This document shows positions 5,284 through 20,470 of a stretch of 64,000 bases of DNA, piece by piece; within the stretch, counting starts at the first letter, position 1, and each line of letters begins with the position of its first letter. The position numbers and the translations under genes were made by a program. The notes under the pieces were generated by a model. That model was given only the letters and a program-made list of their open reading frames with translations. It had not been told where the DNA came from and made no database searches. The DNA is taken from positions 124,001 through 188,000 of the forward strand of contig CACWYV010000003.1 in the NCBI GenBank assembly GCA_902765225.1, read 5' to 3'. Source of the DNA: Candidatus Avelusimicrobium intestinale. GTDB taxonomy: Bacteria; Elusimicrobiota; Elusimicrobia; Elusimicrobiales; Elusimicrobiaceae.

Positions 5284-5313
5284 AATTTTAATTTACCACA
5301 TTGTTCTTTTTAT

Positions 5314-5381: not shown

Positions 5382-5400
5382 ACTAGTATAGGGAGAATTT

Positions 5401-6291: not shown

Positions 6292-6306
6292 TTCTAGGAT
6301 AAATTT

Positions 6307-7233
6307 ATGCAATCTAAAAACATTAAAAAATTAAATCGGTTGTTGTATCTCTTAAACCAGTTGGACGGTGGAGAGGTGCGAGTTCTGCGCGAATCCGAAG
6401 AAATGGATGTTACTGAGCGCACGATTCAGCGCGATTTAAAAGATATTGAAATGGGTGGCTTTCCCGTCTACAAAGCCGCACCAGGGGTATATAAGTTTAT
6501 TGAGGGATTTTCGCTTAAGAAAATGGATTTAACCGATAAAGAAGCCTCTTTGCTGCTTATGATGCAAGAATTGATCGCGCCGTTCGGAAAGCGATTTCAG
6601 GAGCCGTTTGAGCGGTTGCGTCAAAAGGTGTTGCGCGTGCCGGACGAATCACCGTTTTATATCAAAATGCCGAAGGGAAGCCAATACAAAGAAACAAAAA
6701 TCACGCGTGTGCTGGAAAAAGGTATTTTAGAGCACACGGAAGTGCGTATGTCGCTGGTGGCTGATACCTCGCGCAAACTAACTTACGAATTAAAGCCGCT
6801 TAAAATTATGAATTATGACGGTTTTTGGTATCTGCTGGGTATCAATGCTTATAAACAGGTGCGAAAATTCCGCCTAGACCGCATTTTGGACGCTATCAAT
6901 ACCGATAAACCGTTCAAGATCACTAAAAATATCCAAAAAATGCTGTCGGAAAGCCATAATATTTGGTTTGGGGAAAAACGGGATAAAATTGTGTCGTTTA
7001 TTGTACCTGCTCAATTTGCACCGTATTTTAAGCAGAAAGATTATTTCCCTATGCAAAAAATCCGCAAAACGCAGAAAAACGGGGATATTTTGGTGGAAAC
7101 AAGAGTGTCTAACTACCGTGAAATTATCCCAACGGTGCTGAGTTGGCTGGAACATATCACGCTAGTCAGCCCGGCTGATTTTAAGCAACTGATTTGCCAA
7201 ATTATACGTCAAGCCGATAAACGGATGAAATAA
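6307..7233 (+). CDS. WYL-domain transcriptional regulator (YafY-like)
   Basis: An N-terminal winged HTH of the DeoR/HTH_11 type (about residues 8-55, VTERTIQRDLKDIEMGGFPV) is followed by a WYL domain around residues 130-235 (DGFWYLLGINAYKQVRKFRLDR) and a C-terminal WCX-like domain. WYL regulators sense ligands, often nucleic acids, and commonly control phage-defence islands such as CRISPR-Cas, BREX and CBASS. It is 15 bases behind Fic-1 and should be co-transcribed. A bidirectional terminator overlaps the stop codon. The second Fic gene lacks this partner. Family is confident; regulation of the island is inference. Confidence 0.88.
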   Translation: MQSKNIKKLNRLLYLLNQLDGGEVRVLRESEEMDVTERTIQRDLKDIEMGGFPVYKAAPGVYKFIEGFSLKKMDLTDKEASLLLMMQELIAPFGKRFQEPFERLRQKVLRVPDESPFYIKMPKGSQYKETKITRVLEKGILEHTEVRMSLVADTSRKLTYELKPLKIMNYDGFWYLLGINAYKQVRKFRLDRILDAINTDKPFKITKNIQKMLSESHNIWFGEKRDKIVSFIVPAQFAPYFKQKDYFPMQKIRKTQKNGDILVETRVSNYREIIPTVLSWLEHITLVSPADFKQLICQIIRQADKRMK

Positions 7234-7259
7234 AAAGCGGGGCAAATACCCCGCTTTTT
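7232..7259. terminator. Bidirectional terminator between WYL and nuclease-like genes
   Basis: Perfect 11-bp stem (7232-7242 with 7249-7259), A run on the left and T run on the right, between converging genes whose stops are only 28 bases apart. Confidence 0.9.
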
Positions 7260-7261
7260 GA

Positions 7262-7771
7262 TTATTTTAGTAGCAATTCCCACTTATCTTTATATTCTTC
7301 CAGCCAGTTAGAAGATATATCTGGTGACTCTTTGTATGACGGTTTAATGCGTCGCATGGTTGTATCTTGATGCGGTTGTCCCTTTTGCCCTGGCGTATTG
7401 AGCCAATCTTGGTGGGTTTTTTTGAGAATTTGCGCTACTTTTTCAGCAGGCATGATGTATGTTTTTGGCTGACACTCATCGGTCCATTTTTCAGGTAAAG
7501 TTACAAAAACATAAAACAAATCTTTGTCGCAGATTTCCTCATGTTTTTTGCTCATCATCCAACCATTATCAGCCGATTTCCCTTCAGTGCGAGTTTTTAC
7601 CTGAATGCGGATAGGGCACTCGTAGGAAGGGTGAATTGCCAGAATGTCTATGTCTTTTGTGTTCTCCGGTGCTAATCCCGCGGGAATTGCCAATTCTTTG
7701 GCAATGCGCGCGAGGACGTAATGCTCTCCCGCAGACCGGATAAATGCTTTATCATTTTCTTGCTTGCTCAT
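7262..7771 (-). CDS. PD-(D/E)XK-like small protein, second gene of a pair
   Basis: 169 residues with the layout of a PD-(D/E)XK nuclease core: an N-terminal helix with E16 (GEHYV), D42 on a strand (DIDILAI) and Q57-V-K59 on the next strand (IRIQVKT). The Q variant of the E-x-K motif is common in this superfamily. The C-terminal third is charged and unlike anything I recognise. It begins 9 bases after the stop of another protein with the same core layout, so the two are one transcription unit. DNA cleavage is inferred from three short motifs only; a non-catalytic member is possible. Confidence 0.55.
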   Translation of the reverse strand: MSKQENDKAFIRSAGEHYVLARIAKELAIPAGLAPENTKDIDILAIHPSYECPIRIQVKTRTEGKSADNGWMMSKKHEEICDKDLFYVFVTLPEKWTDECQPKTYIMPAEKVAQILKKTHQDWLNTPGQKGQPHQDTTMRRIKPSYKESPDISSNWLEEYKDKWELLLK

Positions 7772-7780
7772 AACCTCTCC

Positions 7781-8245
7781 TTACTTGAATTTTTTACTAA
7801 ATTCTTCTTGTTTAATTTCGTATTTTTGATATTTGGGGCGTGGTTTTCCGCCGGGGGAAAGTAAAACAAGGGATGTTTTATCTATATTCTTACCGCTTTT
7901 ATGCCGCGAACATTCTTTCAAATATTCTTTTGCTGACAAACACCACATCGTGTTAAGTTGTTCAACGATAAAAATATAGTAATAATTAGGGCGATCTACA
8001 GGATTTTTGACTTGAAATCTCCCACTACCCATTGTGCAAAATCCCGGCTCATTTTCTTTTAATTTGCGGGCTTTGACTTGTAATTCAATAAAACGCCCTG
8101 ACGAGGTTTTAGCCACAAAATCTGTTCCATTGTCATCAACGGCTGGTATGAAACACTCAAAACCTTCCGCCATAAATCGGCTGATAATTAGTAACTCCAT
8201 TCGTCGTGCATAACAAGCACTTGATTCTATCCAGGGTGGTATCAT
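7781..8245 (-). CDS. PD-(D/E)XK-like small protein, first gene of a pair
   Basis: 154 residues. E17 in an early helix, D42 in NGTDFVA, and Q56-V-K58 in FIELQVKAR give the PD-(D/E)XK spacing, nearly identical to that of its downstream neighbour, so an ancient duplication or a paired heterodimer is plausible. AAGGAGGAAT is a strong ribosome site for the ATG at 8245. A modest promoter (TTGATG, 17 bp, CTAAAT on the minus strand, 8294-8266) lies just upstream, and a structured RNA candidate lies beyond it. Possible roles are a restriction subunit or a defence effector; function is not established. Confidence 0.55.
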   Translation of the reverse strand: MIPPWIESSACYARRMELLIISRFMAEGFECFIPAVDDNGTDFVAKTSSGRFIELQVKARKLKENEPGFCTMGSGRFQVKNPVDRPNYYYIFIVEQLNTMWCLSAKEYLKECSRHKSGKNIDKTSLVLLSPGGKPRPKYQKYEIKQEEFSKKFK

Positions 8246-8265
8246 GTAAATTCCTCCTTGTGTGT

Positions 8266-8294
8266 ATTTAGCCTTACTTTGGCCTAAACATCAA
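8266..8294 (-). promoter_or_regulatory. Possible promoter of the paired nuclease-like genes
   Basis: Minus strand TTGATG (8294-8289), 17-bp spacer, CTAAAT (8271-8266), about 20 bases before the start codon. The quasi-palindrome CGACAAACGTTCGTCG (one mismatched pair, about 8317-8332) lies just upstream and could be an operator. Confidence 0.35.
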
Positions 8295-8346
8295 GTAAAT
8301 TGTAGGACATAGTTCCGACAAACGTTCGTCGCTTTTTACTATTAGA

Positions 8347-8528
8347 ATAAAAAAGGCGGCAACCTTTTCGAATAGCTGAGAACCGATCCGAAACGCTGCC
8401 GCCTGCCCACCCCGTAAAGGGTGTGCAAAAGACGACTTCGTTTTCGTTTCTCAGCTCGCCGGATACCGGCGGGGCTATGCCAGACGCATAACGCCAAAAA
8501 CAAGTCCAAAAGCAAATTGTGTACAACT
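8347..8528 (-). ncRNA. Candidate structured non-coding RNA with possible pseudoknot
   Basis: On the minus strand a TATAAT (8540-8535) precedes about 180 bases dense in complementary segments, ending in a six-T run (8354-8349). Visible stems: CGCCGG/CCGGCG closed by three bases; TATGC/GCATA; CACCC/GGGTG around TTTACG; AGCTGAGAA with TTCTCAGCT; and AGGCGGCA with TGCCGCCT. The last two pairings interleave, so they form a pseudoknot or two alternative folds, the second running into the T tract like a terminator. Any reading frame through it gives an unconvincing protein. It could be a free RNA, an attenuator leader for the nuclease-like pair, or an antitoxin RNA. No known family is recognised. 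Confidence 0.5.
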
Positions 8529-8614
8529 GCCTATATTATAACTTTTTGCACAGGATAAGGGGGAGGTTGATAAGAAGGTTTAGTTTTTGTATAGAGAGAA
8601 TATAGGAGAATTTT

Positions 8615-9475
8615 ATGAAAAATCTTAAAAAGCCGTTAAAAATAGGGATTTTGATTTCCTGTTGCCGTTCCTACAAACATCCCCAAAATGAATTTGAAGA
8701 AATGGGGTATGTGGAGCGAAAGATTGTATATTCTTGGGAAGATATACCAAAAAACATCCAAAAACGCTTATCGAAAGAGGAATGTTTGTTATTTCAATCC
8801 CTTGTTTATAATTCTACTTTGGCAGAAGCAATTGTACAGTTTCGTAAAAAATTTGGCTTGCCGGAGGAAGGGGTTCCATTTAAGAAATATGAAAAGTTAA
8901 TCTGCCGCATCGGCAAAGGCCCGCTATACAGATTTGATACTATTCCGGAAATGCAGCATGGGAACGAGGCAAAGGCCCGGCGGTTTTTACGATGTTTCGC
9001 AAAGGAAAATACAATAGCAGATCCGCTTAAAATTCATTTAGAAACAATTTTTTATGCCGGATTTGTAGATCCTAAGCCATATAAATATGGCCCTCTTTCC
9101 ATTCATATTCCTTCCATCCCGGATGATACAACCGGGAAAATCGAACAATACCGTCCTCCGGTGATGATAGCAATCAATTCTGATGATGTATCGCCAAGTG
9201 AAATCCAAAAATATATTCGTACGTATTGGGGCGATATTAAACGGTATTTTCATAAGCATCACTTTGTGTCAGATGTGCGTATTCCTACTGAATGCCTGCA
9301 TAGTTTGGTACTCAAAACAAAAGGAAAGACATCCAAGCAAATTTTAGAACTGTTAGATGCTCAAAATATCAAACAAGGTAAGGATGTTATTAATAAGGGA
9401 GAAGAAGCTATCCGGCAGGAGATTAAACGGACGAAAAATAAAATACAAAAGCTCATTTTTCCTTGTAAGAAATAA
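8615..9475 (+). CDS. Hypothetical island protein
   Basis: 286 residues, no recognised domain, no signal peptide or membrane segment. It is rich in Lys and Ile; the C-terminal 60 residues are strongly basic (IRQEIKRTKNKIQKL), which could contact nucleic acid. A central segment (SEIQKYIRTYWGDIKRYF) looks helical and amphipathic. RBS GGAGAA lies just upstream of the ATG. It sits between the structured RNA candidate and a phage-type methyltransferase, so it may belong to the packaging module as an early phage gene, but nothing in the sequence proves that. Confidence 0.6.
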   Translation: MKNLKKPLKIGILISCCRSYKHPQNEFEEMGYVERKIVYSWEDIPKNIQKRLSKEECLLFQSLVYNSTLAEAIVQFRKKFGLPEEGVPFKKYEKLICRIGKGPLYRFDTIPEMQHGNEAKARRFLRCFAKENTIADPLKIHLETIFYAGFVDPKPYKYGPLSIHIPSIPDDTTGKIEQYRPPVMIAINSDDVSPSEIQKYIRTYWGDIKRYFHKHHFVSDVRIPTECLHSLVLKTKGKTSKQILELLDAQNIKQGKDVINKGEEAIRQEIKRTKNKIQKLIFPCKK

Positions 9476-9477
9476 GC

Positions 9478-9504
9478 GTGACAAAATTTTTCATTTTGTG
9501 TCAC
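9478..9504 (+). promoter_or_regulatory. Inverted repeat upstream of the methyltransferase
   Basis: GTGACAAAAT and ATTTTGTGTCAC form an inverted repeat with one extra base in the right arm, spanning 27 bp. It could be an operator or a small hairpin ahead of the methyltransferase at 9574. Confidence 0.35.
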
Positions 9505-9573
9505 GGTGGAAATACTTCAGTCTTACTATACTTTACTCTGTGCCTATCACTAATTACAGGCACGGAGTTTTTT

Positions 9574-10845
9574 ATGCAAACCATAAAAATCAACAAACTT
9601 AAACCGCATCCGCACAATGCACGGACGCATAGCAAAAAGCAACTGCGCCAAATCGCCCAAAGTATTGAGGCGTTTGGCTTTACAAACCCTGTTCTTATAG
9701 ACGGGAAAGATAATATCCTCGCCGGGCATGGGCGCGTAGAGGCCGCAAAACTAGTCGGCCTTACCGAAGTGCCTTGCGTGCGGATTACGCACCTCACACC
9801 CGCTCAAAAAAGGGCGTATATTTTGGCCGATAACCGTTTGGCCGAATTATCCGGCTGGGACGAGGAATTGCTCAAAGTGGAACTAGCCGAAATCAATCAG
9901 TTGGACTGTGATTTTGACCTTACCTTAACGGGTTTTGAAACGCCGGAGATAGACAATCTCTTGCAACCAGATACGGCGCCTTCCCCGGAGAAGGCCGATT
10001 TTCTGTCGGTCGATATTCCGCCTCGCGTTCAACCCGGTGATTTGTGGCAATTAGGCCCGCATAAACTTTTTTGTGGGGATGCCACAAAGCCGCAATCATA
10101 CGCTATTTTATTGGAGAGTGAAAAGGCTCATATCATTGTGACGGACGCACCGTATAACGTCAACATTGTGGGCCACGTACGCAGTAGTAAAAAATACCGC
10201 GAGTTTGCTATGGCCTCGGGTGAAATGAGCCAAAGCGAATTTACGCAATTTTTGTACGGCGTATTCACATTATTAACCCAATACACTACGCCGGGGAGTT
10301 TGCATTACGCTTTTATGGATTGGCGGCACGTGGGGGAAATTTTACAAGCTGGGCGGGTATATAGCGAACTAAAAAATATCTGTGTGTGGAATAAATTGAG
10401 CGGCGGTATGGGCAGTTTGTATCGCAGCCAGCACGAACTGGTTTTCGTATTCAAAAACGGGAGTAGCCCGCACACCAACAACATTGAACTTGGGGTACAC
10501 GGCCGTTACCGTACCAATGTGTGGGACTATCCCGGTATCTATCTAAACGGCAAGGCCAACCGCGCGAATATTCACTTGCATCCGACGGTAAAGCCGGTGG
10601 GATTACTTTCGGATATTTTGCTGGATGCGAGCCGTCGCAATGAGATTGTGTTGGACCCGTTTGGGGGGAGTGGAAGTACCTTGCTGGCCGCTGATCGTAC
10701 GGGACGCCGCGCGCGGCTAATGGAAATTGACCCGCACTATTGCGACGTGATTTTGTACCGCTACGAACAGTTGGGCGGCAAAGAAGTGAAACTTTTACGT
10801 AGAGAGGTAAATGATGAAAATACCAAGAAAACAAGTAGAAAATGA
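9574..10845 (+). CDS. ParB-domain site-specific DNA methyltransferase (N4/N6 type)
   Basis: The first about 110 residues are a ParB/sulfiredoxin-like domain (HPHNARTHS, AGHGRVEAAK). The catalytic part has motif IV as DAPYNV (usually DPPY or NPPY) followed much later by motif I, LDPFGGSGSTLLAA, which is the beta-class order. It should methylate adenine N6 or cytosine N4. The ATG at 9574 with GGAG upstream is preferred over a GTG at 9478 that would pass through an inverted repeat. Such ParB-methyltransferase fusions are common just before phage terminase genes, as here, where they probably protect phage DNA. The DUF5681 gene overlaps its end by 32 bases. No cognate restriction enzyme is adjacent. 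Confidence 0.85.
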   Translation: MQTIKINKLKPHPHNARTHSKKQLRQIAQSIEAFGFTNPVLIDGKDNILAGHGRVEAAKLVGLTEVPCVRITHLTPAQKRAYILADNRLAELSGWDEELLKVELAEINQLDCDFDLTLTGFETPEIDNLLQPDTAPSPEKADFLSVDIPPRVQPGDLWQLGPHKLFCGDATKPQSYAILLESEKAHIIVTDAPYNVNIVGHVRSSKKYREFAMASGEMSQSEFTQFLYGVFTLLTQYTTPGSLHYAFMDWRHVGEILQAGRVYSELKNICVWNKLSGGMGSLYRSQHELVFVFKNGSSPHTNNIELGVHGRYRTNVWDYPGIYLNGKANRANIHLHPTVKPVGLLSDILLDASRRNEIVLDPFGGSGSTLLAADRTGRRARLMEIDPHYCDVILYRYEQLGGKEVKLLRREVNDENTKKTSRK

Positions 10846-11218
10846 GGATGCTGGTTATACCATCGGCTATTGTAAGCCGCCTGTTCATACACGGTTCCAA
10901 CCCGGTCAGTCGGGTAACCCGAGAGGGCGTAAAAAGGGACATAAAAACCTTAACACGTTGCTACGTCAAGGACTGAATCAGTCCATAACGGTATCGGTGG
11001 GTGGGAAAAAGCGTTCCATGCCCAAATATGCGGTAATCATTACCACGCTTATTAACAAGGCCGTGCAGGGGGAGGCAAAGGCCGTTCAAATCCTTCTGCC
11101 CTACATCCTCAAAATGGAGCAAGCAGAGGCAAAATTAGCCCAAGGAATACAGGCGTTATCTGCTAACGATAAGGAGATCTTAAAAGAATATGTCAGTAGA
11201 AATAATAAACAATCGTGA
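10814..11218 (+). CDS. DUF5681 protein, phage packaging-associated
   Basis: The N terminus has the DUF5681 signature (HTRFQPGQSGNPRGRKKG), a basic motif seen in small proteins encoded beside phage terminases. The rest is mostly helical. The second of two adjacent ATGs is chosen because AGAGAGG ends six bases before it. It overlaps the methyltransferase upstream and terL downstream (by 29 bases), so the three genes look translationally coupled. It may act as a small terminase or DNA-recognition subunit; that is inference from position. Two smaller proteins with related motifs lie further downstream. Confidence 0.75.
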   Translation: MKIPRKQVENEDAGYTIGYCKPPVHTRFQPGQSGNPRGRKKGHKNLNTLLRQGLNQSITVSVGGKKRSMPKYAVIITTLINKAVQGEAKAVQILLPYILKMEQAEAKLAQGIQALSANDKEILKEYVSRNNKQS

Positions 11219-12674
11219 AAAAGAAATTTTAAAGGCCTTGTTGCGGGTAGACTTTAAATCATTTTGTATCAAGGTTTTTTATGAGGTGGCTGGCGAGGCT
11301 GCCTATTTGGATAATTGGCACGTGGACGTTATTTGCCAAGCGGTGGAAGATATGCGCCTTGGGAAGAATACCCGGCTTATTATCAACGTACCGCCAAGGT
11401 ATATGAAATCTATTATTTGCTCGGTGGCGTTGCCTGCTTTTTTGCTGGGACATAACCCCAAAGAGCGCATTTTGTGCGTCAGTTATTCCGACGAACTTTC
11501 TGCCAAAATGGCGTCTGACCAACGTAAAGTAATGGAGAGTGAGTGGTATCAAGCATTGTTCCCTTTTACGCGCTTATCTCGCCGCGGGATAATGGACTTG
11601 GAGACAACGCCCGGTGGTGGGCGGTTTTCTACATCCGTAGGTGGTACGATTACCGGGCGCGGAGGAAATTGGATTATCATTGACGACCCGATAAAACCCG
11701 CTGATGCAAGTTCCGACACAATTCGCAACAAAGTGAACGATTGGTACGGTAATACGCTCCTTTCCCGGTTGGACGATAAGCGCAACGGAAAAATACTGGC
11801 TATTATGCAGCGTACGCACCTAAACGATTTAACGGGCCACTTGCTGGAAACTGACCCTTCGTTTCAGTTGATAAAAATGCCGGCTCTTGCTTCGGAAGAT
11901 GAAACATGGTCTATTGCCACACCGTTTGGGGTGCCGCGCATTGTTAAACGCCCAATTGGAGCGGCGTTACACCCTGAACGGGAAAGTGTGGACGAATTGA
12001 GACGTATCAAATCCACCGCAGGTAGTTATACGTTTGCCAGCCAATATCAACAAGCGCCGGAATGTTTAGGGGGGAATATTATTCGCCGGGAATGGTTGCA
12101 TACATACAGCGCGCCTGAATTGTATGAGCAAGTGCGCACCAGAAGATTGAATTTAGGGCTAGGCCAAAGTTGGGATACAGCGAGTAAAGCCGGAGAAGAT
12201 AACGATTATTCTGTCTGCATTACCTATGCGCACGATTATTGCAAGAGAGTGTGGGTGCTGGATGTATTTAGGGCTAAACTGGAATTCCCTGCCCTATTGA
12301 TGACGGCGGAACGGTTGATAGAGGAGTGTGCCCAGAAGTACAAATTATTAAACCCTTATTTGCCGGACGTGTTGATTGAAGAAATGAATAGTGGTGTGGG
12401 AATGGGGCAAACGCTTCAAATTAAGTTTGGGGAACAAATCAAATTTGTTAAACCCGTGCAAGATAAAGCTACGCGGCTTAAATCCGTGTCACACTTGCTT
12501 GAAAATGGGACGTGTTTGTTCCCGGATGACAATCCCGCGTGGTGGCCGGATTTTGAGCGGGAATTATTACAGTTTCCAAACGGCCGGCACGACGACCAAT
12601 GTGATGCTCTTTCCCAGTTATTGATGTATGAGCAGAACGAACGCAAAGACATCTCGTGGCTTGAACATGTGTAA
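11190..12674 (+). CDS. terL: Phage terminase large subunit
   Basis: 494 residues, a normal length. The ATPase half has the variant Walker A found in this group (NVPPRYMKS, residues about 67-75) and Walker B WIIIDDPI, with the coupling region after it. The nuclease half contains SWDTASKAGEDNDYS, VLIEEMNSG and a terminal RHDDQCDALSQ, the acidic residues of an RNase H-like nuclease. It would cut and pump phage DNA into procapsids. No portal, capsid or tail gene follows; the next gene runs in the opposite direction, so this is an isolated packaging module. Confidence 0.92.
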   Translation: MSVEIINNREKEILKALLRVDFKSFCIKVFYEVAGEAAYLDNWHVDVICQAVEDMRLGKNTRLIINVPPRYMKSIICSVALPAFLLGHNPKERILCVSYSDELSAKMASDQRKVMESEWYQALFPFTRLSRRGIMDLETTPGGGRFSTSVGGTITGRGGNWIIIDDPIKPADASSDTIRNKVNDWYGNTLLSRLDDKRNGKILAIMQRTHLNDLTGHLLETDPSFQLIKMPALASEDETWSIATPFGVPRIVKRPIGAALHPERESVDELRRIKSTAGSYTFASQYQQAPECLGGNIIRREWLHTYSAPELYEQVRTRRLNLGLGQSWDTASKAGEDNDYSVCITYAHDYCKRVWVLDVFRAKLEFPALLMTAERLIEECAQKYKLLNPYLPDVLIEEMNSGVGMGQTLQIKFGEQIKFVKPVQDKATRLKSVSHLLENGTCLFPDDNPAWWPDFERELLQFPNGRHDDQCDALSQLLMYEQNERKDISWLEHV

Positions 12675-12746
12675 GGAACAATAACGGAAGTGACCAAGGC
12701 CTATTGTTTCTCTTTTGTATCATAGGTCCAAAAATAAGTTAGATAA

Positions 12747-13310
12747 TTATTTGCTAATTTTCCAAAAATGTGGTCCGCTAATATTTTTGGAGCCCGTGAT
12801 CTTTCTGGTAACGGCGGTTAAAGAAGGATATGTTTTTCTATTATAGACAATTTTACCGTTCTTCTTTATAATAACCCGATATTGTTTTCCTTTATAGATC
12901 CGAGTGATTGTCTTTGCGGAATTTAATACGTCTGGGAATAATTCGCTGAGATGTTGTTTTTGTAATTGTTGAATTTCTCTAGCTAATTCTTTCTTGTATC
13001 GCATTTCATTTTTAAATAGCGTAGAGTTTCCAGAGGGTTTTAACAAGGTAACAAGAAGTCTCTCTAAACTATCCAAAAACCGATTGTCATTTACAACATA
13101 TAGAGAAAAGGCATCCCAATGGTTACTGTGTTTGTCTGAAAAATGCTGTTTAATTCGTTGGCGTAACTTGGTAGCTTTGCCAACATAATAAATTTTCTTG
13201 CCGCGATGGAGTATATAAATCCCGCCTTTATCACCAATTTTGTTGGCTAGGACGGAATCATATTCCTGTAATATTTCAATAGGAGCTTGATAGAGTTGAT
13301 AGATAATCAT
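12747..13310 (-). CDS. GIY-YIG nuclease fused to a DUF2924-like domain
   Basis: Residues about 27-90 are a GIY-YIG domain: GIYIL, then YYVGKATKLRQRIKQH with the catalytic arginine region. The C-terminal 55 residues (TITRIYKGKQYRVIIKK ... SLTAVTRKITGS ... GPHFWKI) match the pattern of DUF2924, which also ends the two small proteins encoded at 13415 and 13920. The fusion suggests a nuclease tethered through the same module. TATAAT occurs on its strand shortly before the start, and the intergenic region is shared with the divergent gene at 13415. It may be a homing or resolvase-like nuclease of the element. Confidence 0.75.
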   Translation of the reverse strand: MIIYQLYQAPIEILQEYDSVLANKIGDKGGIYILHRGKKIYYVGKATKLRQRIKQHFSDKHSNHWDAFSLYVVNDNRFLDSLERLLVTLLKPSGNSTLFKNEMRYKKELAREIQQLQKQHLSELFPDVLNSAKTITRIYKGKQYRVIIKKNGKIVYNRKTYPSLTAVTRKITGSKNISGPHFWKISK

Positions 13311-13344
13311 GTTTCCATTATATCAGTTTTTTTATAAAAAATAC

Positions 13345-13413
13345 TTGACTTATCTCCCGATAGTAAGCGTGAATGTAGTACGAAGTAAAAATCGCTTATT
13401 TAAGGAGATAAGT
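13345..13413 (+). promoter_or_regulatory. Divergent control region with repeated element and inverted repeat
   Basis: TTGACT (13345-13350) starts an element, ACTTGACTTATCTCCC then RATAGTAAGCGTGAATGT, that recurs at 15079 with one substitution. In this copy ACTTATCTCC (13348-13357) is perfectly inverted as GGAGATAAGT (13404-13413), which also contains the ribosome site of the gene at 13415. I see no good -10 at the right distance. Confidence 0.45.
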
Positions 13414-13414
13414 T

Positions 13415-13723
13415 ATGAAGAAAAACACTAAAAAATCACTAACAAAAACTAAACCCGCGCAACCTGCTGTTTTACGGGTCGTGAGTCCTATTATTACCAA
13501 AGAAACACCGCTTGAAAACTTGCCTATCCGGCCACGCGATAACCGCTTGCCTGCACCGGGTAGCATCATCACTAAAATCTACCGAGGCAAAACCATAGAA
13601 GTAAAAGTGCTGGGAAACGGCTTTGAATACGAAGGGAAAGTATTCAAAAGCATCTCACGTGTGGCAATGACGATCGTCAAACGCCAAATCAGCGGTTATG
13701 TATTCTTTGGGCTTTCCAAATGA
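13415..13723 (+). CDS. DUF2924-like small protein (first of the operon)
   Basis: 102 residues. A basic, low-complexity N terminus (KKNTKKSLTKTKP) precedes a C-terminal DUF2924-like domain: GSIITKIYRGKTIEVKVL, EYEGKVFKSISRVAMTI, ISGYVFFGL. DUF2924 proteins are typically encoded next to phage-type serine recombinases, as here. It overlaps the following gene by four bases, so expression is coupled. Its ribosome site AAGGAGATAAG is one arm of an inverted repeat with the upstream element. Molecular function is unknown. Confidence 0.75.
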   Translation: MKKNTKKSLTKTKPAQPAVLRVVSPIITKETPLENLPIRPRDNRLPAPGSIITKIYRGKTIEVKVLGNGFEYEGKVFKSISRVAMTIVKRQISGYVFFGLSK

Positions 13724-13923
13724 CACCGCGCCATTTACCACCCACTTCAGGGCGATTTGTAAAGGGCCGCTCGGGCAATCCATTGGGGCGGCCTCCCCAA
13801 AATTTACCCGAACGGGAAATCCTTTTAATAATTGCTAAATTTTTGGAAACTTTGGCCAAGGCCTATTGTAATCAAAGCCGTTCGGTGGAAAAAATCCGTC
13901 AGATTAAAGATATTTTATCATGA
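13720..13923 (+). CDS. Short DUF5681-like protein
   Basis: 67 residues whose N terminus, SGRFVKGRSGNPLGRPP, is the DUF5681-type motif also found in the terminase-associated protein at 10814. The rest is one or two helices. It overlaps both neighbours by four bases (ATGA junctions), making a three-gene coupled operon. It may be a truncated form keeping only the DNA- or protein-binding motif. Confidence 0.65.
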   Translation: MTPRHLPPTSGRFVKGRSGNPLGRPPQNLPEREILLIIAKFLETLAKAYCNQSRSVEKIRQIKDILS

Positions 13924-14351
13924 GAAGAAAGTGCTATTTGCCCAAAAGTTATGAAGAATTAAAAGGCCTATCCCCCAAAGAACTGCGGTTTTATTGGAAT
14001 GCTTTTTATACCTGCCCTTTGAGAGGTGTTAAGGCCAAGTTGCGCCCTTTGTGGTATGCCATCCAATGTGAGCTAGGGCGTTGTAAATTACAAGAAAAAT
14101 ACATCACGCGGCTTGACCGGTATGCGAGCAATCCCGACAAGTATATTGAGCATGCGCATAAAAAGCGTTATGCACTTGCCGCCGGAACGATACTGACTAA
14201 AACCTATAAAGGGCGGACGTATCAAGTGACCGTAAAAGGGGAAAACGCTTACGAGTGGGAAGGTAAAATATATCCTAATTTAACAGCATTAGCCGAGAAA
14301 ATAGTGCGTGCCCACGTTAGCGGCCCCAAATTTTTCGGATTAACTAGATAG
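13920..14351 (+). CDS. DUF2924-like protein
   Basis: 143 residues. The N-terminal about 85 residues are basic and helical (LSPKELRFYWNAFYTCPL), as in full-length DUF2924 proteins. The C-terminal domain is GTILTKTYKGRTYQVTVKG ... YPNLTALAEKIV ... SGPKFFGL. It is the last gene of the coupled operon and the best match to the DUF2924 protein that usually precedes a serine recombinase. Here a gene on the other strand separates them and overlaps this one by eight bases at the 3' end. Confidence 0.75.
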   Translation: MRRKCYLPKSYEELKGLSPKELRFYWNAFYTCPLRGVKAKLRPLWYAIQCELGRCKLQEKYITRLDRYASNPDKYIEHAHKKRYALAAGTILTKTYKGRTYQVTVKGENAYEWEGKIYPNLTALAEKIVRAHVSGPKFFGLTR

Positions 14352-15078
14352 AATTAGTACGAATAAGGGGTATAAGTATTTGTTCTACCTTTTTAATGAT
14401 GTCATCGATTGGAGTTGGGCTTGCATAAAGATCCCAAAGTTGTCTGCTATATGGTTTATTATCTTTATTTATTTGACTGACTCCTTCCAGTAAGGTGGAT
14501 ATTTTGAGCCATATGTCATTGGATAAAAATGATGAGGTTTCTTCAAAACATTTTTCTAAATTTTCTCCAAAATAGATGCGTGCTTTAATTTTCAATGACA
14601 TGAGATGATTAATATTTTCTAATTCATTATTCCAGCGGTGTAAAAACACAAGACCTCTTTTAATGATACGTGGATTTTGATCCGAAAGGTTTGAATTCTT
14701 CATTATTTCTTTCAAAATGTCTTCCGCTTTTTGTTCTTCCTCTCCTGTGCTTAATGGACTGCAAATTCTTTTAATAGATTGATTGACTTTATGAAAAGCT
14801 TCTGTAATTTCTGCAGCAAGTTCAAGTTTTTTCTCTTCTAATCTCTCAATAGCCTTATTATGAATATCTTTAATTTCTTCGTTTTGTTTATTTCCCCATG
14901 ATGTAATGCTATGGGTGCTCAAAATAACCCCTAAGAAAGCAGTTATTGCTGCCAAACAGCCGGAATAACTGTCTAATTTGATGTGATAATTTTTGTACAA
15001 CACGATTTCGAACACAACCAGTAAGATTATTAACGCAATTATATCCAATGATTGACGATTTTCCTTTAAGAATTTCAT
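14344..15078 (-). CDS. Hypothetical membrane protein with coiled-coil
   Basis: Start taken as the ATG at 15078 (MKFLKENRQ), because GGGAGAT sits 9 bases upstream; an ATG at 15096 would add six residues but lacks a site. Two N-terminal hydrophobic segments (IIALIILLVVFEIVLY and a second near residues 42-58) anchor it. Then comes a charged helix rich in Glu and Lys (KAIERLEEKKLELAAEI), probably coiled-coil, and a helical soluble domain. It is A+T-rich and inserted between the DUF2924 operon and the recombinase, so it looks like cargo. No function is recognised; small TM-plus-coiled-coil proteins can be phage-defence effectors, but that is speculation. Confidence 0.6.
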   Translation of the reverse strand: MKFLKENRQSLDIIALIILLVVFEIVLYKNYHIKLDSYSGCLAAITAFLGVILSTHSITSWGNKQNEEIKDIHNKAIERLEEKKLELAAEITEAFHKVNQSIKRICSPLSTGEEEQKAEDILKEIMKNSNLSDQNPRIIKRGLVFLHRWNNELENINHLMSLKIKARIYFGENLEKCFEETSSFLSNDIWLKISTLLEGVSQINKDNKPYSRQLWDLYASPTPIDDIIKKVEQILIPLIRTNSI

Positions 15079-15112
15079 ACTTGACTTATCTCCCAATAGT
15101 AAGCGTGAATGT
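15079..15112. repeat. Second copy of the 33-bp control element
   Basis: ACTTGACTTATCTCCC at 15079-15094 continues with AATAGTAAGCGTGAATGT, matching the element at 13343 except for one base. It lies between divergent genes in both places, here the membrane protein gene and the recombinase. CTTATC and GATA-GTAAG inside it form an imperfect palindrome, suggesting a shared regulator. Confidence 0.55.
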
Positions 15113-15132
15113 GTATAGGAGAATTATACTAA

Positions 15133-16761
15133 ATGGCAAAAATTAATTGTGCGATATATACTCGTAAATCTACGGAGCGCGGCTTGGAAATGGAGTTTAA
15201 CTCGCTCCAAAACCAAGAAGAAGCGTGCAAAGCTTATATTCTCTCACAAGCGTTTAACGGGTGGGAGTATTATAAAACCTTTGAGGATGGTGGAATTAGC
15301 GGCGGCACGATGGAGCGCCCCGGCTTGCAGGCGCTTTTGGAAGAAATTCGCGAGCGCAATATACAGGTGGTCGTCGTTTATAAAGTGGACCGTCTTTCGC
15401 GTTCTATATTTGATTTCCATAAAATGATGCAGGAGTTTGCCAAATATGAGTGCAACTTCGTATCTATAACCCAATCGTTTGATACGAGCAATTCTATGGG
15501 GAAACTCACGCTCAATATGCTTTTATCCTTTGCCCAGTTTGAACGCGAGGTATCTGCCGAGCGCGTGCGCGATAAAATCGCTGCCAGTAAGGCCAAAGGG
15601 CTGTGGATGGGCGGTACTCCACCGATTGGGTATGATGCCAATGAACGGCAGCTTATCGTAAACGATGGTGAGGCACAATTAGTGCGGCTGATTTTTCAAA
15701 AATATATTGAAACCGAGAATATGTTTGCGGTGGCTGATTATCTTAACGCACAGGGTATTTGTACGAAGAAATGGGTGGCACGGCGAAGTAAGCGCGAACA
15801 TGGTGGCGGACAGTTTTACAAAAGCAATATTCAACGCATTTTGACAAATCCGCTTTATATTGGGAAAATTGCACACTACGCCCAAAACAAAATATACGAT
15901 GGCAAACACGAAGGAATTATATCGCGTGATTTGTGGGATAAAGTTCAAGAACTTATTCGCCGTCGTATTAACGATCCAAATGCTTTTCTGCACTATAAAT
16001 GCCATAAAACAGTTTTGGCAGGTAAATTATACGACGAAAAGGGGCAGAATTTTCGGTTCACTTCGTCAAAAAAGCAAGGCAAAAAGTTCCTGTATTACTA
16101 CAACGGCGTGGGCGGGCATTATCTATCCGTGGAGCAGTTGGACAGATTTGTACTAAATATGCTCAAAACGGCAGATTTTGACGAGATAGAGCCATTGGCG
16201 GATATGAGTGCCATTACTGATACTCAATTGAGCGCGTGGATTACCAAAGCTACCTGCCAAACGGTAGGCAAGAAACATTATTTAACGGTGTTTTTGGATG
16301 AAAAACAGATAAAGACCGATTTGGGAAATTGTCCCAAAATGTCAGGGCAGGTGGATGCCAAGCCACTTAAAATAGAACGCATAGAAGATACAATTTATCT
16401 GCGGAATAGTTTTATGGTGGATAATATTTCATCTGTGCGGCTACGGAATGGGAGGGCCCGAAATATTTTAACCGTAAGGCAACTCAATGAGAGTTTAGTG
16501 CGTGCCTTGGCGCGTGGTTGGCAACTTAAAAAGAGGATGGAGCAAGGAGTCATTATCCGGGAGTTAGAAAAAGAAATGCACATGACCAAACGTACGATTA
16601 CGCGGTATATTAACTTATGTTACTTATCCCCACATATTGTGGGGGATATCTTGGAATATAAGAATCCGGACAATTTAACATTGCGGGAGCTTATGAATTT
16701 GGCAGAAGGCCAAGTGGATTTTGAGAGGCAAGAAAAGGTATGGCACAAGCAGCGTATATGA
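15133..16761 (+). CDS. Large serine recombinase (element integrase)
   Basis: The N-terminal resolvase domain has the nucleophile S13 in YTRKSTERG and the conserved arginines in YKVDRLSRS and FEREVSAERVRDKI. A recombinase domain follows (GGTPPIGYD to about residue 270). The usual zinc-ribbon cysteines are missing: LAGKLYDEKGQNFRF replaces the C-x2-C pattern, a subtype often found with DUF2924 partners. The C-terminal part contains HTH-like segments (REL.KEMHMTKRTITRYI). It should integrate and excise the element through short att sites. RBS AGGAGAA is well placed. Confidence 0.92.
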   Translation: MAKINCAIYTRKSTERGLEMEFNSLQNQEEACKAYILSQAFNGWEYYKTFEDGGISGGTMERPGLQALLEEIRERNIQVVVVYKVDRLSRSIFDFHKMMQEFAKYECNFVSITQSFDTSNSMGKLTLNMLLSFAQFEREVSAERVRDKIAASKAKGLWMGGTPPIGYDANERQLIVNDGEAQLVRLIFQKYIETENMFAVADYLNAQGICTKKWVARRSKREHGGGQFYKSNIQRILTNPLYIGKIAHYAQNKIYDGKHEGIISRDLWDKVQELIRRRINDPNAFLHYKCHKTVLAGKLYDEKGQNFRFTSSKKQGKKFLYYYNGVGGHYLSVEQLDRFVLNMLKTADFDEIEPLADMSAITDTQLSAWITKATCQTVGKKHYLTVFLDEKQIKTDLGNCPKMSGQVDAKPLKIERIEDTIYLRNSFMVDNISSVRLRNGRARNILTVRQLNESLVRALARGWQLKKRMEQGVIIRELEKEMHMTKRTITRYINLCYLSPHIVGDILEYKNPDNLTLRELMNLAEGQVDFERQEKVWHKQRI

Positions 16762-16773
16762 CATAGTAATATA

Positions 16774-16809
16774 GAAAAAATCGATTTTTTCCACTCGAAA
16801 TGTTATACT
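16774..16809 (+). promoter_or_regulatory. 18-bp palindrome overlapping a promoter, possible leaderless start
   Basis: GAAAAAATCGATTTTTTC (16774-16791) is a perfect palindrome. TCGATT within it (16781-16786) is 17 bp from TATACT (16804-16809), and the ATG follows at 16817 with no ribosome site, so the transcript could be leaderless. The palindrome could be an operator, or a weak terminator for the recombinase. Confidence 0.45.
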
Positions 16810-16816
16810 AAAAGAT

Positions 16817-18784
16817 ATGATAGCCAATGTTCAAAGAGTAATCAAAAATTTGAAAGAAATTTCTTTCATGCAGCCCATTTATGAAGCTGTAAATAATGCG
16901 TTGGAAGCTTCAGCTAGTGAAATAAAAGTCCATTTTCATACCACAACAACGATGTTTTCAGAGAAAGAAGTAAAAAAATATGTCATTGGTGTTACTGTCG
17001 AAGATAATGGGGAAGGATTTAGCAAAGATAATATCATTTCTTTCTGTGAATATTTAACTGATAAAAAAGCTGCATTGGGGTGTAAGGGGATAGGGCGTTT
17101 TACTTGGTTAAAAGTATTTCAATATGCTCTTATATCAAGTGAAATTAAAGAACCCCAAGGGCATTCTTCTATCCAATTTAAATTTGATGCTAATTTTACG
17201 GATATATTGCCTAGTCAATTAGAAAAGAAGAGAGTTTTTGATGATAAGCCTTTAACCGAAAATAAAACTCTGATCCAATTGGAAAATATATCAAAGAAGT
17301 ATTTTGATGTAAGTAGAAAAGAGCAATGTGTTCCAGAAGCTAATTTATTTGAATTAACAGAACACATTCGTTTGCATTTACTTCCTAATCTCATTTTGCG
17401 CAAGCAAGCGGGGAAGAAATTTACTATAGTCCTCACAATGGATGATAGTGACGATAGCCAAATTATTAGTAATACGTCGATTGTGGAATTGCAGAAAAAA
17501 GAATTTCTAGTAGATGTTGAAATCGGCGATAGCAAGGAACAAGTGCCATTCAATTTGTTTATGAGTATTACCAAAGATGGGAAAGGGCGTTCTGATAATT
17601 ATTTCTGTGCCCACAATAGAACGGTTACAAAATTTGAGGATGAAGGCATTAAGATAACTGTTCCCAATCAGGATTCCTCTGTTTTTTTATTGACTTCAAC
17701 TTATTTAGATGATCGGGTAAATCAAGAACGAAACGGTTTTGATAATATTAAACCTAGATCTTCTGATTTGGCTAGTCCGTTATCTTGGGAAGGAATTAAA
17801 CGGCCTTTAATCACTAATATTGCTGATGAAATTGATAAGTTATATCCTGATATGAAGAAATGGAATGCAACCACTCTAGAACATTTAGTCCAGGAACATC
17901 CTCACTTAGCAAAATATTTACGTAATGAAGAGAAAAATCTTGGAGTTTTGAATACTGAAGAAATTTTAAAACGATCGAAAAAACATTATGAGGATGATAA
18001 GGACAGAATCGAAAAAAATTTTTTACAAGCATTGGAGCGTAATAAAGTGGATAGCGCTTCGTTTAAAGAAGCTATCTCTGATATACAAGAGATGTCAACG
18101 TTTGAATTGGCCCGTTATGTCATGTATAGACAAAATATTATCAAAGCACTAAAAAAGATATCCGAAGAAACTGAGGGAAAGGAAGAGAAGTTGCACTCTC
18201 TATTTATGCAGATGATAAAATCTGCTAAGAGTGGCAATTACTTGGATTCCAATTTGTGGTTGTTTGACGATAAATATATGACATATGACTATGTTGCTAG
18301 CGACTGTAGTATTAAGCGGATTTTCGAGGAAATGAAACAAGAATCCCCTAGATCGTTTGGAGGAAGAGAACCGGATTTAGTTATTTTTTACTCGACTTCT
18401 CAAGAGAAAGAAAGGAAAGATTTGGTCGTAGTGGAATTTAAAAAACCGCAAGCAACCCGACAAGAAAAAGATATTTCTATTACTGAAATTACGAATAACG
18501 TTGCTATTTTTAAACGGCATATACCTAATTTGGGACAAGTTTGGAATTATATTGTAACTACAATAGACGATTCTTTTATGGAAACCCTACGCAATCAGGA
18601 TTTCCAACCCTTATTTGCTCCGGGTAAAGATAAGGAAAGAATATTTTATAAATATTACAGAAATCTTGAAGCTCACTGTTATGCTGTTTCCATCGAAGCG
18701 ATTATTCATAATTCAAATCTTCGCAACAAGACATTTTTAAATATTTTAACAGGAAAAGAGCTCGGTCATAATGAAAAAATTTAA
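16817..18784 (+). CDS. GHKL (MORC-like) ATPase with C-terminal nuclease-like domain
   Basis: 655 residues. The N terminus is a GHKL/HSP90-type ATPase: N box EAVNNALEASAS (E23, N27), DNGEGF with D63, and the lid glycines in GCKGIGRFTWL near residues 92-104. A helical, charged middle (about 330-480) resembles a linker or stalk. Near residues 510-560, REPDLVIF followed by DLVVVEFKKP fits the D-xn-E-x-K core of a PD-(D/E)XK nuclease. ATP-gated clamp plus nuclease is a layout seen in several prokaryotic defence systems. It is A+T-rich, single, and directly downstream of an integrase. Motifs are clear in the ATPase, tentative in the nuclease. Confidence 0.7.
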   Translation: MIANVQRVIKNLKEISFMQPIYEAVNNALEASASEIKVHFHTTTTMFSEKEVKKYVIGVTVEDNGEGFSKDNIISFCEYLTDKKAALGCKGIGRFTWLKVFQYALISSEIKEPQGHSSIQFKFDANFTDILPSQLEKKRVFDDKPLTENKTLIQLENISKKYFDVSRKEQCVPEANLFELTEHIRLHLLPNLILRKQAGKKFTIVLTMDDSDDSQIISNTSIVELQKKEFLVDVEIGDSKEQVPFNLFMSITKDGKGRSDNYFCAHNRTVTKFEDEGIKITVPNQDSSVFLLTSTYLDDRVNQERNGFDNIKPRSSDLASPLSWEGIKRPLITNIADEIDKLYPDMKKWNATTLEHLVQEHPHLAKYLRNEEKNLGVLNTEEILKRSKKHYEDDKDRIEKNFLQALERNKVDSASFKEAISDIQEMSTFELARYVMYRQNIIKALKKISEETEGKEEKLHSLFMQMIKSAKSGNYLDSNLWLFDDKYMTYDYVASDCSIKRIFEEMKQESPRSFGGREPDLVIFYSTSQEKERKDLVVVEFKKPQATRQEKDISITEITNNVAIFKRHIPNLGQVWNYIVTTIDDSFMETLRNQDFQPLFAPGKDKERIFYKYYRNLEAHCYAVSIEAIIHNSNLRNKTFLNILTGKELGHNEKI

Positions 18785-18814
18785 ATTTGGATCCTGAAAA
18801 ATTTGCAGTTAGAG

Positions 18815-18839
18815 AAAAAGGCCCAAAATAGGCCTTTTT
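18815..18839. terminator. Terminator after the GHKL gene
   Basis: Stem AAAAAGGCC (18815-18823) with GGCCTTTTT (18831-18839), loop CAAAATA; works in both directions. Confidence 0.85.
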
Positions 18840-18923
18840 TGCGCCCATCTAAAAGCACTCTAGGACCTGCATGGATAAAAACAGCTATATTTTCCCGACG
18901 AGCGTAGGAGAAATAGGCCAACA

Positions 18924-18956: not shown

Positions 18957-18998
18957 TGGTGGTCCGCGTGAGACTTGAACCTGTGACCTTCTGGATTT
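18957..18998 (-). pseudogene. tRNA 3'-end fragment (attachment-site scar)
   Basis: Minus strand reads into GGTCACAGGTTCAAGTCTC, then GCGGACC and ACCA: variable loop, T arm, acceptor 3' strand, discriminator and CCA of a tRNA. No matching 5' half (GGTCCGC) occurs upstream on that strand. The 21 bp at 18972-18992 recur exactly at 20174-20194. tRNA 3' ends are classic integration sites, so this is probably one boundary of an element. Confidence 0.7.
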
Positions 18999-19174
18999 TT
19001 CTCTCGTGTGAGGGATGTTGTGGGGGCAAATTCGCCTAACGTGGGCTTTATAGAGCCGGGTAGGTATAGGTACCCGCAGAAAAACCCACAGAGACAAATG
19101 TTAAGAATAACCTATTAATTCCCCGAAGATAAATTGTTGCCATGTTAAGATTAAATGTGGAGCAACTTTTTCCG

Positions 19175-19242
19175 TTATCGGCAAAATATAATTGTTTATT
19201 TATAAAATATTACTTGATTTATTGCCGATAATCGGTTATACT
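19175..19242 (+). promoter_or_regulatory. Fic-2 promoter with overlapping inverted-repeat operator
   Basis: -35 TTGATT (19214-19219), 17-bp spacer, -10 TATACT (19237-19242). TTATCGGCAA (19175-19184) and TTGCCGATAA (19222-19231) span 57 bp, exactly as at the first Fic gene, with the right arm in the spacer. Confidence 0.8.
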
Positions 19243-19262
19243 AGTAGTAACAGGAGAGGGTT

Positions 19263-20153
19263 ATGGAATATATCTCGGCAGTACAAGCAGCTAAAAAGTG
19301 GAAAATTTCGGAGCGGAGCGTGCGTAATTATTGTGCGCATGGCCGTATTGCGGGGGCTTTTTTAACCGGCAAGACATGGAATATCCCGTCGGAGGCCTCT
19401 AAACCTATGCGTAAGCCCAAACAAAGCAAGCACGCTAATACCTTACTTAATATATTAAAAGCCGAGCAATCTTCCAAACAACATGGCGGTATTTATCATA
19501 AGATACAAATTGACCTTACTTATAATTCCAACCATATAGAAGGCAGCCAACTTACCCATGACCAAACTCGTTATATTTTTGAAACAAACACGATTGGAGT
19601 GGAAGATAATACCGTAAAGGTAGATGATATTGTAGAAACCGCTAACCACTTTAAATGTATTGATATGATTATTGATAACGCCAACTATAAACCCAGTGAA
19701 CATTTTCTAAAAGAATTACACGGTGTGCTTAAAAACGGGACTTCGGATAGTCGCAAGGCCTGGTTTGCGGTAGGGGATTATAAACGCAAACCCAATGAAG
19801 TAGGGGGACACGCCACTGTCAGTCCGGAACAGGTAGCGGCTAAAATGAAGACCTTGCTAGCCAAGTACAACCGCAAAAATAAACATACGTTTGAGGAACT
19901 ATTAGATTTCCATTACCAGTTTGAAGCCATTCACCCTTTTCAAGATGGAAACGGACGTATCGGTCGGCTGATACTGTTTAAGGAGTGTTTGCGTAATAAT
20001 ATCGTTCCATTTATCATTACGGACAAGATAAAGATGTTCTATTATAAAGGACTTAATGAGTGGCCGAAAAATCACGAACGCTTAATTGATACCTGTTTGG
20101 CCGCACAAGACCAGATGAAAGCTGTGCTGGATTATTTTAAGATTACCTATTAA
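19263..20153 (+). CDS. HTH-Fic protein (copy 2)
   Basis: Same architecture and length as the protein at 5401: HTH at about 4-45, inhibitory motif SNHIEG at 89-94, catalytic HPFQDGNGRIGR at 224-235, all intact. Differences cluster in the first 70 residues and in positions 113-155; the last 75 residues are almost unchanged, suggesting selection on the catalytic half and perhaps drift of partner contacts. RBS CAGGAGAGGG is strong. There is no WYL gene behind it; a tRNA 3'-end repeat lies on each side. It could cross-regulate the first copy, because both operators share the same arms. Confidence 0.9.
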   Translation: MEYISAVQAAKKWKISERSVRNYCAHGRIAGAFLTGKTWNIPSEASKPMRKPKQSKHANTLLNILKAEQSSKQHGGIYHKIQIDLTYNSNHIEGSQLTHDQTRYIFETNTIGVEDNTVKVDDIVETANHFKCIDMIIDNANYKPSEHFLKELHGVLKNGTSDSRKAWFAVGDYKRKPNEVGGHATVSPEQVAAKMKTLLAKYNRKNKHTFEELLDFHYQFEAIHPFQDGNGRIGRLILFKECLRNNIVPFIITDKIKMFYYKGLNEWPKNHERLIDTCLAAQDQMKAVLDYFKITY

Positions 20154-20173
20154 AACAGTTTAATACCGCGCAG

Positions 20174-20194
20174 GACTTGAACCTGTGACCTTCT
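20174..20194 (-). repeat. Right copy of the 21-bp tRNA 3'-end direct repeat
   Basis: Identical to 18972-18992 over 21 bp (core ACTTGAACCTGTGACCTT), with flanks that diverge at once on both sides. It lies 20 bases after the Fic-2 stop and marks the probable right end of the Fic cassette. Confidence 0.7.
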
Positions 20195-20397: not shown

Positions 20398-20470
20398 TGG
20401 ACCGGAAGGGACTCGAACCCCTGACCTCCTGCGTGTAAAGCAGGCGCTCTACCAACTAAGCTACCGATCC
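20398..20470 (-). tRNA. tRNA-Val (anticodon TAC)
   Basis: Cloverleaf readable by eye on the minus strand: acceptor GGATCGG/CCGGTCC with one wobble, D arm with GGTAGAGC, anticodon stem CCTGC/GCAGG around loop TTTACAC (anticodon TAC, reads GUA/GUG), T loop TTCGAGT, discriminator A. CCA is not encoded. It closes the accessory island on the right. Confidence 0.95.

What the first reader, a model, noticed from the sequence alone, without database searches (positions are those of the whole stretch)
16774..18784. GHKL ATPase fused to a nuclease-like domain, possibly read from a leaderless mRNA
MORC-like N, G1 and G2 boxes are intact, and D-x-E-x-K (PDLVIF...VVEFKK) appears near the C terminus. The promoter -10 ends seven bases before the ATG with no ribosome site, and a perfect 18-bp palindrome covers the -35. 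An ATP-gated clamp with a nuclease, directly behind an integrase, is a good candidate for a single-gene phage-defence system.
Basis: partly seen in the sequence, partly recalled or inferred. Interest (0 to 1): 0.7.

Follow-up and report, generated by a model that had tools for sequence, protein, structure and literature searches.

The report
Mobile paraMORC3/VcSduA-like GHKL-nuclease gene
This is a one-gene protein with an ATP-driven clamp joined to a DNA-cutting domain, carried as swappable cargo behind a DNA recombinase; it belongs to a family (paraMORC3) in which one member is already shown to protect bacteria from viruses, so it is probably a phage-defence gene of a known kind rather than a new one.

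Summary
The ORF (16817-18784, 655 aa) and its motifs are real. GHKL residues E23/N27/D63/G65/G67/G91/G93 and nuclease residues E456/D520/E540/K542 are invariant in all 94 aligned full-length homologues. AlphaFold (pLDDT 90) gives a GHKL plus transducer module matching SMCHD1, MutL, GyrB and MORC3, a helical linker, and a C-terminal domain whose weak best PDB matches are mostly PD-(D/E)XK endonucleases. This architecture is paraMORC3 (Iyer 2008). A published relative, VcSduA ("Shedu type I-D", 2025), blocks phages and needs both the N-box Glu and the ExK Lys. Single-gene phage defence is therefore the best reading, but it is not new. Added here: (i) the gene sits in a cargo slot directly behind a large serine recombinase; one sister genome has the recombinase with no cargo, another a Schlafen/AlbA_2 gene in exactly the same place, and recombinase relatives elsewhere in the genus precede BREX or IetAS genes; (ii) it lies in a compact 10-member sister clade and, with its nearest relative, has lost the conserved Q..Y after ExK; (iii) no member tested hits Pfam SduA_C, and profile similarity to Shedu is moderate (87%); (iv) "leaderless" is possible but unproven; a second 18-bp palindrome lies just after the start codon.

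The parts
16817..18784 (+). GHKL ATPase-nuclease gene (paraMORC3 / VcSduA-like), 655 aa
   Evidence: ORF; full-length homologues at 22-35% identity
16817..17296 (+). GHKL ATP-binding domain, about residues 1-160 (E23, N27, D63, G65, G67, G91, G93)
   Evidence: HATPase_c_3 2e-8; invariant residues; model pLDDT 90.4 and PDB fold matches to SMCHD1, TRAP1, MutL, GyrB, MORC3
17324..17746 (+). S5-like transducer region, about residues 170-310 (invariant R305)
   Evidence: secondary structure of the model; Foldseek alignments of 320-450 columns to GHKL plus transducer modules
17774..18166 (+). long-helix linker, residues about 320-450
   Evidence: model secondary structure H324-342, H346-373, H380-407, H413-450
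18179..18781 (+). C-terminal PD-(D/E)XK-type nuclease domain, residues about 455-655 (E456, D520, E540, K542; conserved Q/Y replaced by E557/N561)
   Evidence: domain model pLDDT 90.7; weak PDB matches dominated by PD-(D/E)XK endonucleases; profile-profile to Shedu SduA prob 87, E 3.7e-6; column counts
16774..16791 (.). perfect 18-bp palindrome GAAAAAATCGATTTTTTC upstream of the gene
16851..16868 (.). second perfect 18-bp palindrome TGAAAGAAATTTCTTTCA within the first codons
16801..16809 (+). extended -10-like TGTTATACT ending 7 nt before the ATG; -35 poor
   Evidence: sequence; not called by the promoter scan
15133..16761 (+). large serine recombinase (Resolvase plus Recombinase), 542 aa, upstream neighbour and likely mobiliser
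   Evidence: matches in 39 of 66 genomes of the genus searched at E<=1e-30
13415..14351 (+). small genes with DUF2924 accompanying the recombinase, also conserved next to it in sister genomes
18785..18841 (+). right junction of the cargo: sequence shared with the sister genome resumes at the stop codon; GGCC...GGCC-T6 terminator-like hairpin at about 18820-18840
   Evidence: hairpin by eye; the scan did not list it
18964..18992 (-). tRNA 3'-end-like remnant, repeated at 20166-20194 (90%)
20398..20470 (-). tRNA-Val marking the end of the island; the same site in sister genomes

Best explanation
A mobile, probably self-sufficient anti-phage nuclease of the paraMORC3 / VcSduA-like kind. Inferred mechanism: the GHKL domain binds ATP and dimerises, the transducer and helical middle close as a clamp around phage DNA (or a phage DNA-protein complex), and clamp closure licenses the C-terminal PD-(D/E)XK domain to cut that DNA, so the phage is restricted while the cell survives. 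The gene travels as a one-gene cassette behind a large serine recombinase. Shown here: both domains and their catalytic residues, the predicted fold, the swappable cargo slot, and defence-type neighbours of homologues and of sister recombinases. Taken from a published distant relative: phage defence that depends on the ATPase and nuclease residues. Inferred: clamp closure, DNA as substrate, and that this copy is active.
For: Invariant ATPase and nuclease residues in 94 homologues. High-confidence model with GHKL-transducer fold matches and a C-terminal domain whose weak matches are mostly nucleases. Profile similarity of the C-terminal domain to Shedu SduA, including D, ExK and the YDxLL region. 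A published relative, VcSduA, has the same architecture; E27A and K557A abolish defence, and cultures survive at all MOIs (PMC12137116). The family member L012 has the equivalent residues at E27 and K556, aligning with E23 and K542 here. Gene-for-gene swap in conserved context: G030 has no cargo (L165) and G018 has a Schlafen/AlbA_2 gene (L169) whose junctions fall at the recombinase end and the cargo stop codon. Related recombinases elsewhere in the genus precede BrxA/BrxC (L213) and IetA/IetS (L214). Homologues adjoin type I specificity subunits, N6-methyltransferases, integrases and phage lysozyme and, on plasmids, CBASS, Shedu, Abi, SIR2 and TIR genes.
Against: Identity to the main family is only about 20-25%, so transfer of function from VcSduA is loose. 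The conserved Q and Y after ExK are E557 and N561 here, shared within its clade only by L019, which could alter or impair the nuclease. No direct Pfam SduA_C hit in the window protein or in the 16 others scanned, and no solved nuclease reached E<0.001 by fold. Only one genome of 61 relatives carries the gene. Gene context cannot show activity.
Confidence: 0.72

Rival explanations
1. The protein is an accessory of restriction-modification or of another multi-gene system, supplying ATP-driven DNA looping rather than acting alone, as first proposed for paraMORCs.
For: Iyer 2008 proposes this for paraMORCs. Its clade mates L020-L022, L024 and L025 lie inside restriction-modification-like clusters; type I specificity subunits are the commonest neighbours.
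Against: No restriction-modification partner is adjacent here. L019 and L099 stand alone behind an integrase and a phage lysozyme. Iyer 2008 notes a standalone subset, and VcSduA acts alone (PMC12137116).
Confidence: 0.12
2. A function serving the mobile element itself: superinfection exclusion against competing elements, or processing of the element's own DNA during movement.
For: Located directly behind the recombinase. The only annotated phage relative also lies beside an integrase, and L099 is in a phage contig.
Against: The recombinase module stands without it in G030 and with unrelated cargo in G018, so it is not needed for the element. Defence and exclusion overlap in practice.
Confidence: 0.1
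3. A degenerate or catalytically altered copy: still an ATP clamp, but with a weakened or re-targeted nuclease.
For: Q557 and Y561 of the family are E and N here and in L019; the stretch after ExK is 31-35 residues instead of 41-51.
Against: E456, D520, E540 and K542 are intact, the ORF is unbroken, and the E/N change is shared with a relative in Clostridia at 33-35% identity, so it is not recent decay.
Confidence: 0.06

Closest known systems
VcSduA, Vibrio cholerae 'Shedu type I-D' (PMC12137116)
   Same: Single gene; N-terminal GHKL ATPase with intact motifs, clamp-like middle, C-terminal PD-(D/E)XK domain; residues E27 and K557 correspond by family alignment to E23 and K542 here; mobile-island setting.
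   Different: Different clade: main family versus a compact 10-member sister clade. About 22% identity to the nearest held Vibrio member L012. Shorter loops after the N box and after ExK, Q/Y replaced. VcSduA itself was not in the collections searched, so it was not aligned directly.
paraMORC3 family (Iyer, Abhiman and Aravind 2008, PMC2292703)
   Same: GHKL plus S5 plus a conserved C-terminal globular domain with E-D-ExK; patchy, laterally mobile distribution; a standalone subset.
   Different: Lies in a divergent sister clade of the sequences gathered here.
Canonical Shedu SduA (PF14082; PDB 8ti8, 8ps4)
   Same: C-terminal core aligns by profile (D, ExK, YDxLL region), prob 87.
   Different: No PF14082 hit, N-terminal half unrelated, Q of the Q..Y motif absent.
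Prokaryotic/eukaryotic MORC and SMCHD1
   Same: GHKL plus transducer fold.
   Different: They lack this C-terminal nuclease (general knowledge); the MORC-specific motif was not tested.

Membership tests
paraMORC3 | N-terminal GHKL domain with intact ATP-binding motifs | tested here: met
   HATPase_c_3 2e-8; N, G1 and G2 residues invariant in 94
paraMORC3 | S5-type domain following the GHKL domain | tested here: met
   Predicted structure and Foldseek alignments to GHKL plus transducer modules of SMCHD1, MutL, GyrB and MORC3; by predicted structure only
paraMORC3 | Additional conserved C-terminal domain with E-D-ExK of the restriction-endonuclease fold | tested here: met
   E456, D520, E540, K542 invariant in 94; weak fold matches are mostly PD-(D/E)XK enzymes
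paraMORC3 | Shares ancestry with the originally described family members | tested here: inconclusive
Shedu (SduA) | SduA_C / DUF4263 domain (PF14082) above its gathering score | tested here: not met
   No PF14082 match at E<=1 in the window protein or among the families reported for the other 16 members scanned; two true SduA controls scored 82-91 bits
Shedu (SduA) | Nuclease core homologous to SduA by a more sensitive comparison | tested here: inconclusive
   hhalign prob 87, E 3.7e-6 for that pair; ExK and D aligned; no Shedu structure among the top 50 Foldseek hits
Shedu type I-D / VcSduA-like | GHKL ATPase fused N-terminally to the nuclease domain in one gene | tested here: met
Shedu type I-D / VcSduA-like | Phage protection dependent on the N-box Glu and the ExK Lys | not testable with these tools
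   residues present (E23, K542); needs phage assays
RecB-like PD-(D/E)XK with Q..Y motif | Q and Y following ExK | tested here: not met
   E557 and N561 in the window protein; Q in 90 and Y in 86 of 94
MORC (sensu stricto) | MORC-family-specific motif | not tested
   paraMORCs are said to lack it; not examined here

The most novel reading that the evidence does not exclude
The compact 10-member sister clade (9 residues instead of 13-22 after the N box, a 31-35 instead of 41-51 residue stretch after ExK with no G-R motif, and in this protein and L019 an E/N instead of the Q/Y pair) is a functionally distinct class of GHKL-gated nuclease. It may recognise a different trigger or substrate than VcSduA, and in this genome it may be expressed from a leaderless transcript controlled by the two palindromes that flank the start codon.
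Probability: 0.15. Interest if true: 0.5.

Novelty: new member of a known kind. Interest (0 to 1): 0.3.

Why it matters
It extends the VcSduA/paraMORC3 defence family to another, small-genome bacterial lineage and to a divergent, compact clade whose active site differs at a normally conserved Q/Y pair. That makes it a useful natural variant for asking which parts of the ATP-gated nuclease are essential. More practically, the sister genomes show a recombinase-linked slot (empty or Schlafen-like here; BREX and IetAS behind related recombinases), which can be used to find further defence genes in this genus.

Tried and rejected
Direct Pfam, PADLOC and NCBIfam identification of the C-terminal domain: nothing significant. 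Single-sequence and profile searches of PDB sequences: only weak GHKL hits, and none for the C-terminal domain. Single-sequence scans of viral and genome contigs found no relatives; the alignment-based scans did. Scan for relatives of the V. fluvialis Shedu in viral contigs: nothing. Gu 2025 (Shedu types) is not held, so its classification is cited only through PMC12137116. The palindrome as a shared regulon site was rejected: it is unique in the genome. The idea that the gene is required by the recombinase element was rejected, because sister elements lack it. Neighbour surveys were run without an ideal background: genes at least 4.5 kb away in the same loci also include defence genes, so only the identity of the commonest neighbours is used.

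Full report
The observation. The window has an uninterrupted 655-aa ORF at 16817-18784 (+), 55 nt behind a 542-aa recombinase. Pfam finds HATPase_c_3 (E 2e-8) and, below its cut-off, a VRR_NUC trace at residues 498-552 (E 0.07). Close relatives are rare: none occurs in 60 related genomes and one short match in the class. Distant relatives are widespread: 55 plasmid records, one phage record, 80 genome loci kept of 520 candidates and 37 viral contigs, at roughly 20-35% identity, mostly over the full length.

Motifs. In an alignment of 94 full-length sequences, E23, N27, D63, G65, G67, G91, G93, R305, R438, E456, N479, W481, D484, S495, D520, E540 and K542 never vary. The family's conserved Q and Y after ExK (90 and 86 of 94) are E557 and N561 in this protein and in its nearest relative L019.

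Structure. The full model (pLDDT 90.4) shows a GHKL domain, a second mixed alpha/beta domain, long helices (about 324-450) and a C-terminal alpha/beta domain. Foldseek against the PDB matches the N-terminal part to SMCHD1, TRAP1, MutL, PMS2, GyrB and MORC3 (E to 9e-11). The C-terminal domain modelled alone (pLDDT 90.7) has no match below E 0.001. Many of its best weak matches are PD-(D/E)XK enzymes: arenavirus cap-snatching endonucleases, EndoMS, XisH, PaqCI, BspD6I, BsoBI and Can2/Card1. A nuclease fold is therefore likely but not statistically proven by fold alone; the invariant E-D-ExK adds independent support.

What family. Iyer et al. 2008 defined paraMORC3 as GHKL plus S5 plus a conserved C-terminal domain with E-D-ExK of the restriction-endonuclease fold, in restriction-modification operons or standalone. 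In 2025 VcSduA of V. cholerae, with the same architecture, was shown to protect against Drexlerviridae in E. coli and vibriophage X29. E27A and K557A abolished it, cultures survived at all MOIs, and it was assigned to Shedu type I-D. VcSduA was not in the collections searched. The V. fluvialis family member L012 has its N-box Glu at 27 and its ExK Lys at 556, so the numbering corresponds. The tree puts the window protein in a fully supported 10-row clade (Clostridia L019, Bacteroidota, Victivallales and phage contig L099), separate from the 100-row group holding L012 and the plasmid members. That clade is more compact: 9 versus 13-22 residues from N27 to the next strand, 31-35 versus 41-51 after K542, and no G-R motif.

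Is it Shedu? None of the 17 members scanned hits SduA_C, although true SduA proteins scored 82-91 bits. Profile-profile comparison of the C-terminal domain with 11 SduA proteins gives probability 87, E 3.7e-6; the full-length profile finds the same region. I therefore say it works like VcSduA and meets the paraMORC3 features tested, and I do not file it as a strict PF14082 Shedu member.

Setting. The gene is cargo in a recombinase-linked slot. In sister genome G030 the recombinase and DUF2924 genes and the downstream Fic/tRNA-Val region are conserved, but no gene stands between recombinase and Fic. In G018 that place holds a 360-aa Schlafen/AlbA_2 gene (PADLOC PDC-S50, 2e-46), and sequence shared with the window resumes at the cargo stop codon. 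Other relatives of the recombinase in the genus are followed by BrxA and BrxC (BREX), IetA/IetS, a DUF2779/Cas4-like protein or HNH proteins; others are followed by ordinary chromosomal genes. The island ends at a tRNA-Val that lies at the same site in the sister genomes compared. Outside the genus, neighbours of homologues are most often type I specificity subunits, integrases, N6-methyltransferases and phage lysozyme. On plasmids they include CBASS (L005), type I restriction-modification plus a separate Shedu (L012), Abi (L016), SIR2 (L018) and a TIR gene (L015). Clade mates L020-L022, L024 and L025 sit in restriction-modification-like clusters (judged from their sequences), L019 behind an integrase and L099 behind a phage lysozyme. 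No conserved housekeeping association appears.

Expression. There is no Shine-Dalgarno site, while 30 of 56 window ORFs have at least a 5-nt match and 46 at least 4. TGTTATACT ends 7 nt before the ATG, but the -35 is poor and the scan does not call a promoter. The palindrome at 16774-16791 is real, unique in the genome and unexpected locally (0.0008 per 55 nt). A second perfect 18-bp palindrome at 16851-16868 lies in the first codons; about 0.5 such palindromes are expected in 64 kb. A leaderless, autoregulated start is possible. Read-through from the recombinase is equally open, and L019 has a ribosome site.

Mechanism and verdict. Most likely (0.72) this is a mobile single-gene anti-phage nuclease in which ATP binding closes a dimeric clamp and licenses PD-(D/E)XK cleavage. 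Domains, residues, predicted fold and cargo-slot position are shown; clamp closure, DNA substrate and activity of this copy are inferred. It is a new, divergent member of a known kind. Interest 0.3.

Noticed in passing
window 5307-6291 and 19168-20153: Two Fic/DOC genes with shared upstream sequence (82% over 90 nt; 76% over the first 300 nt), both strong matches to PADLOC candidate PDC-S04; one at each side of the recombinase element.
   Followed up: partly
window 3223-8245: A candidate defence island: HerA-like ATPase (3223-5283), Fic (5401-6291), WYL regulator (6307-7233), and two adjacent minus-strand genes at 7262-8245; the Fic-WYL block recurs in G019 (L163).
   Followed up: partly
window 9478-16761: Phage-like packaging genes without structural genes: ParB-methyltransferase, a small upstream gene, large terminase, GIY-YIG plus DUF2924, DUF2924 genes and the large serine recombinase. 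A similar set follows the recombinase in G095 (L217). Looks like a remnant or satellite-type element.
   Followed up: no
window 13341-13376 and 15077-15112: A 36-nt direct repeat (97% identical, containing TTGACT) lies upstream of the DUF2924 genes and of the recombinase, and recurs in G018, G024 and G030; a shared promoter, operator or recombination site.
   Followed up: no
L163 13011-13513: About 500 bp 99.4% identical to window 8251-8753, while the adjoining block is only 87% identical: sign of recent transfer between species.
   Followed up: no
L213 (G075:C3): A BREX cluster (BrxA, a second small gene, BrxC) starts about 110 nt behind a 76%-identical recombinase, suggesting that this recombinase family mobilises large defence systems too.
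   Followed up: partly
L169 about 4045-4063: In G018 the recombinase is split between two frames, probably inactive, yet its Schlafen cargo remains open.
   Followed up: no
ON245412.1 40025-42049 (L004 2485-4509): The paraMORC3-type protein of phage vB_RanS_PJN03 is annotated as N-acetylmuramoyl-L-alanine amidase, most likely a mis-annotation.
   Followed up: no
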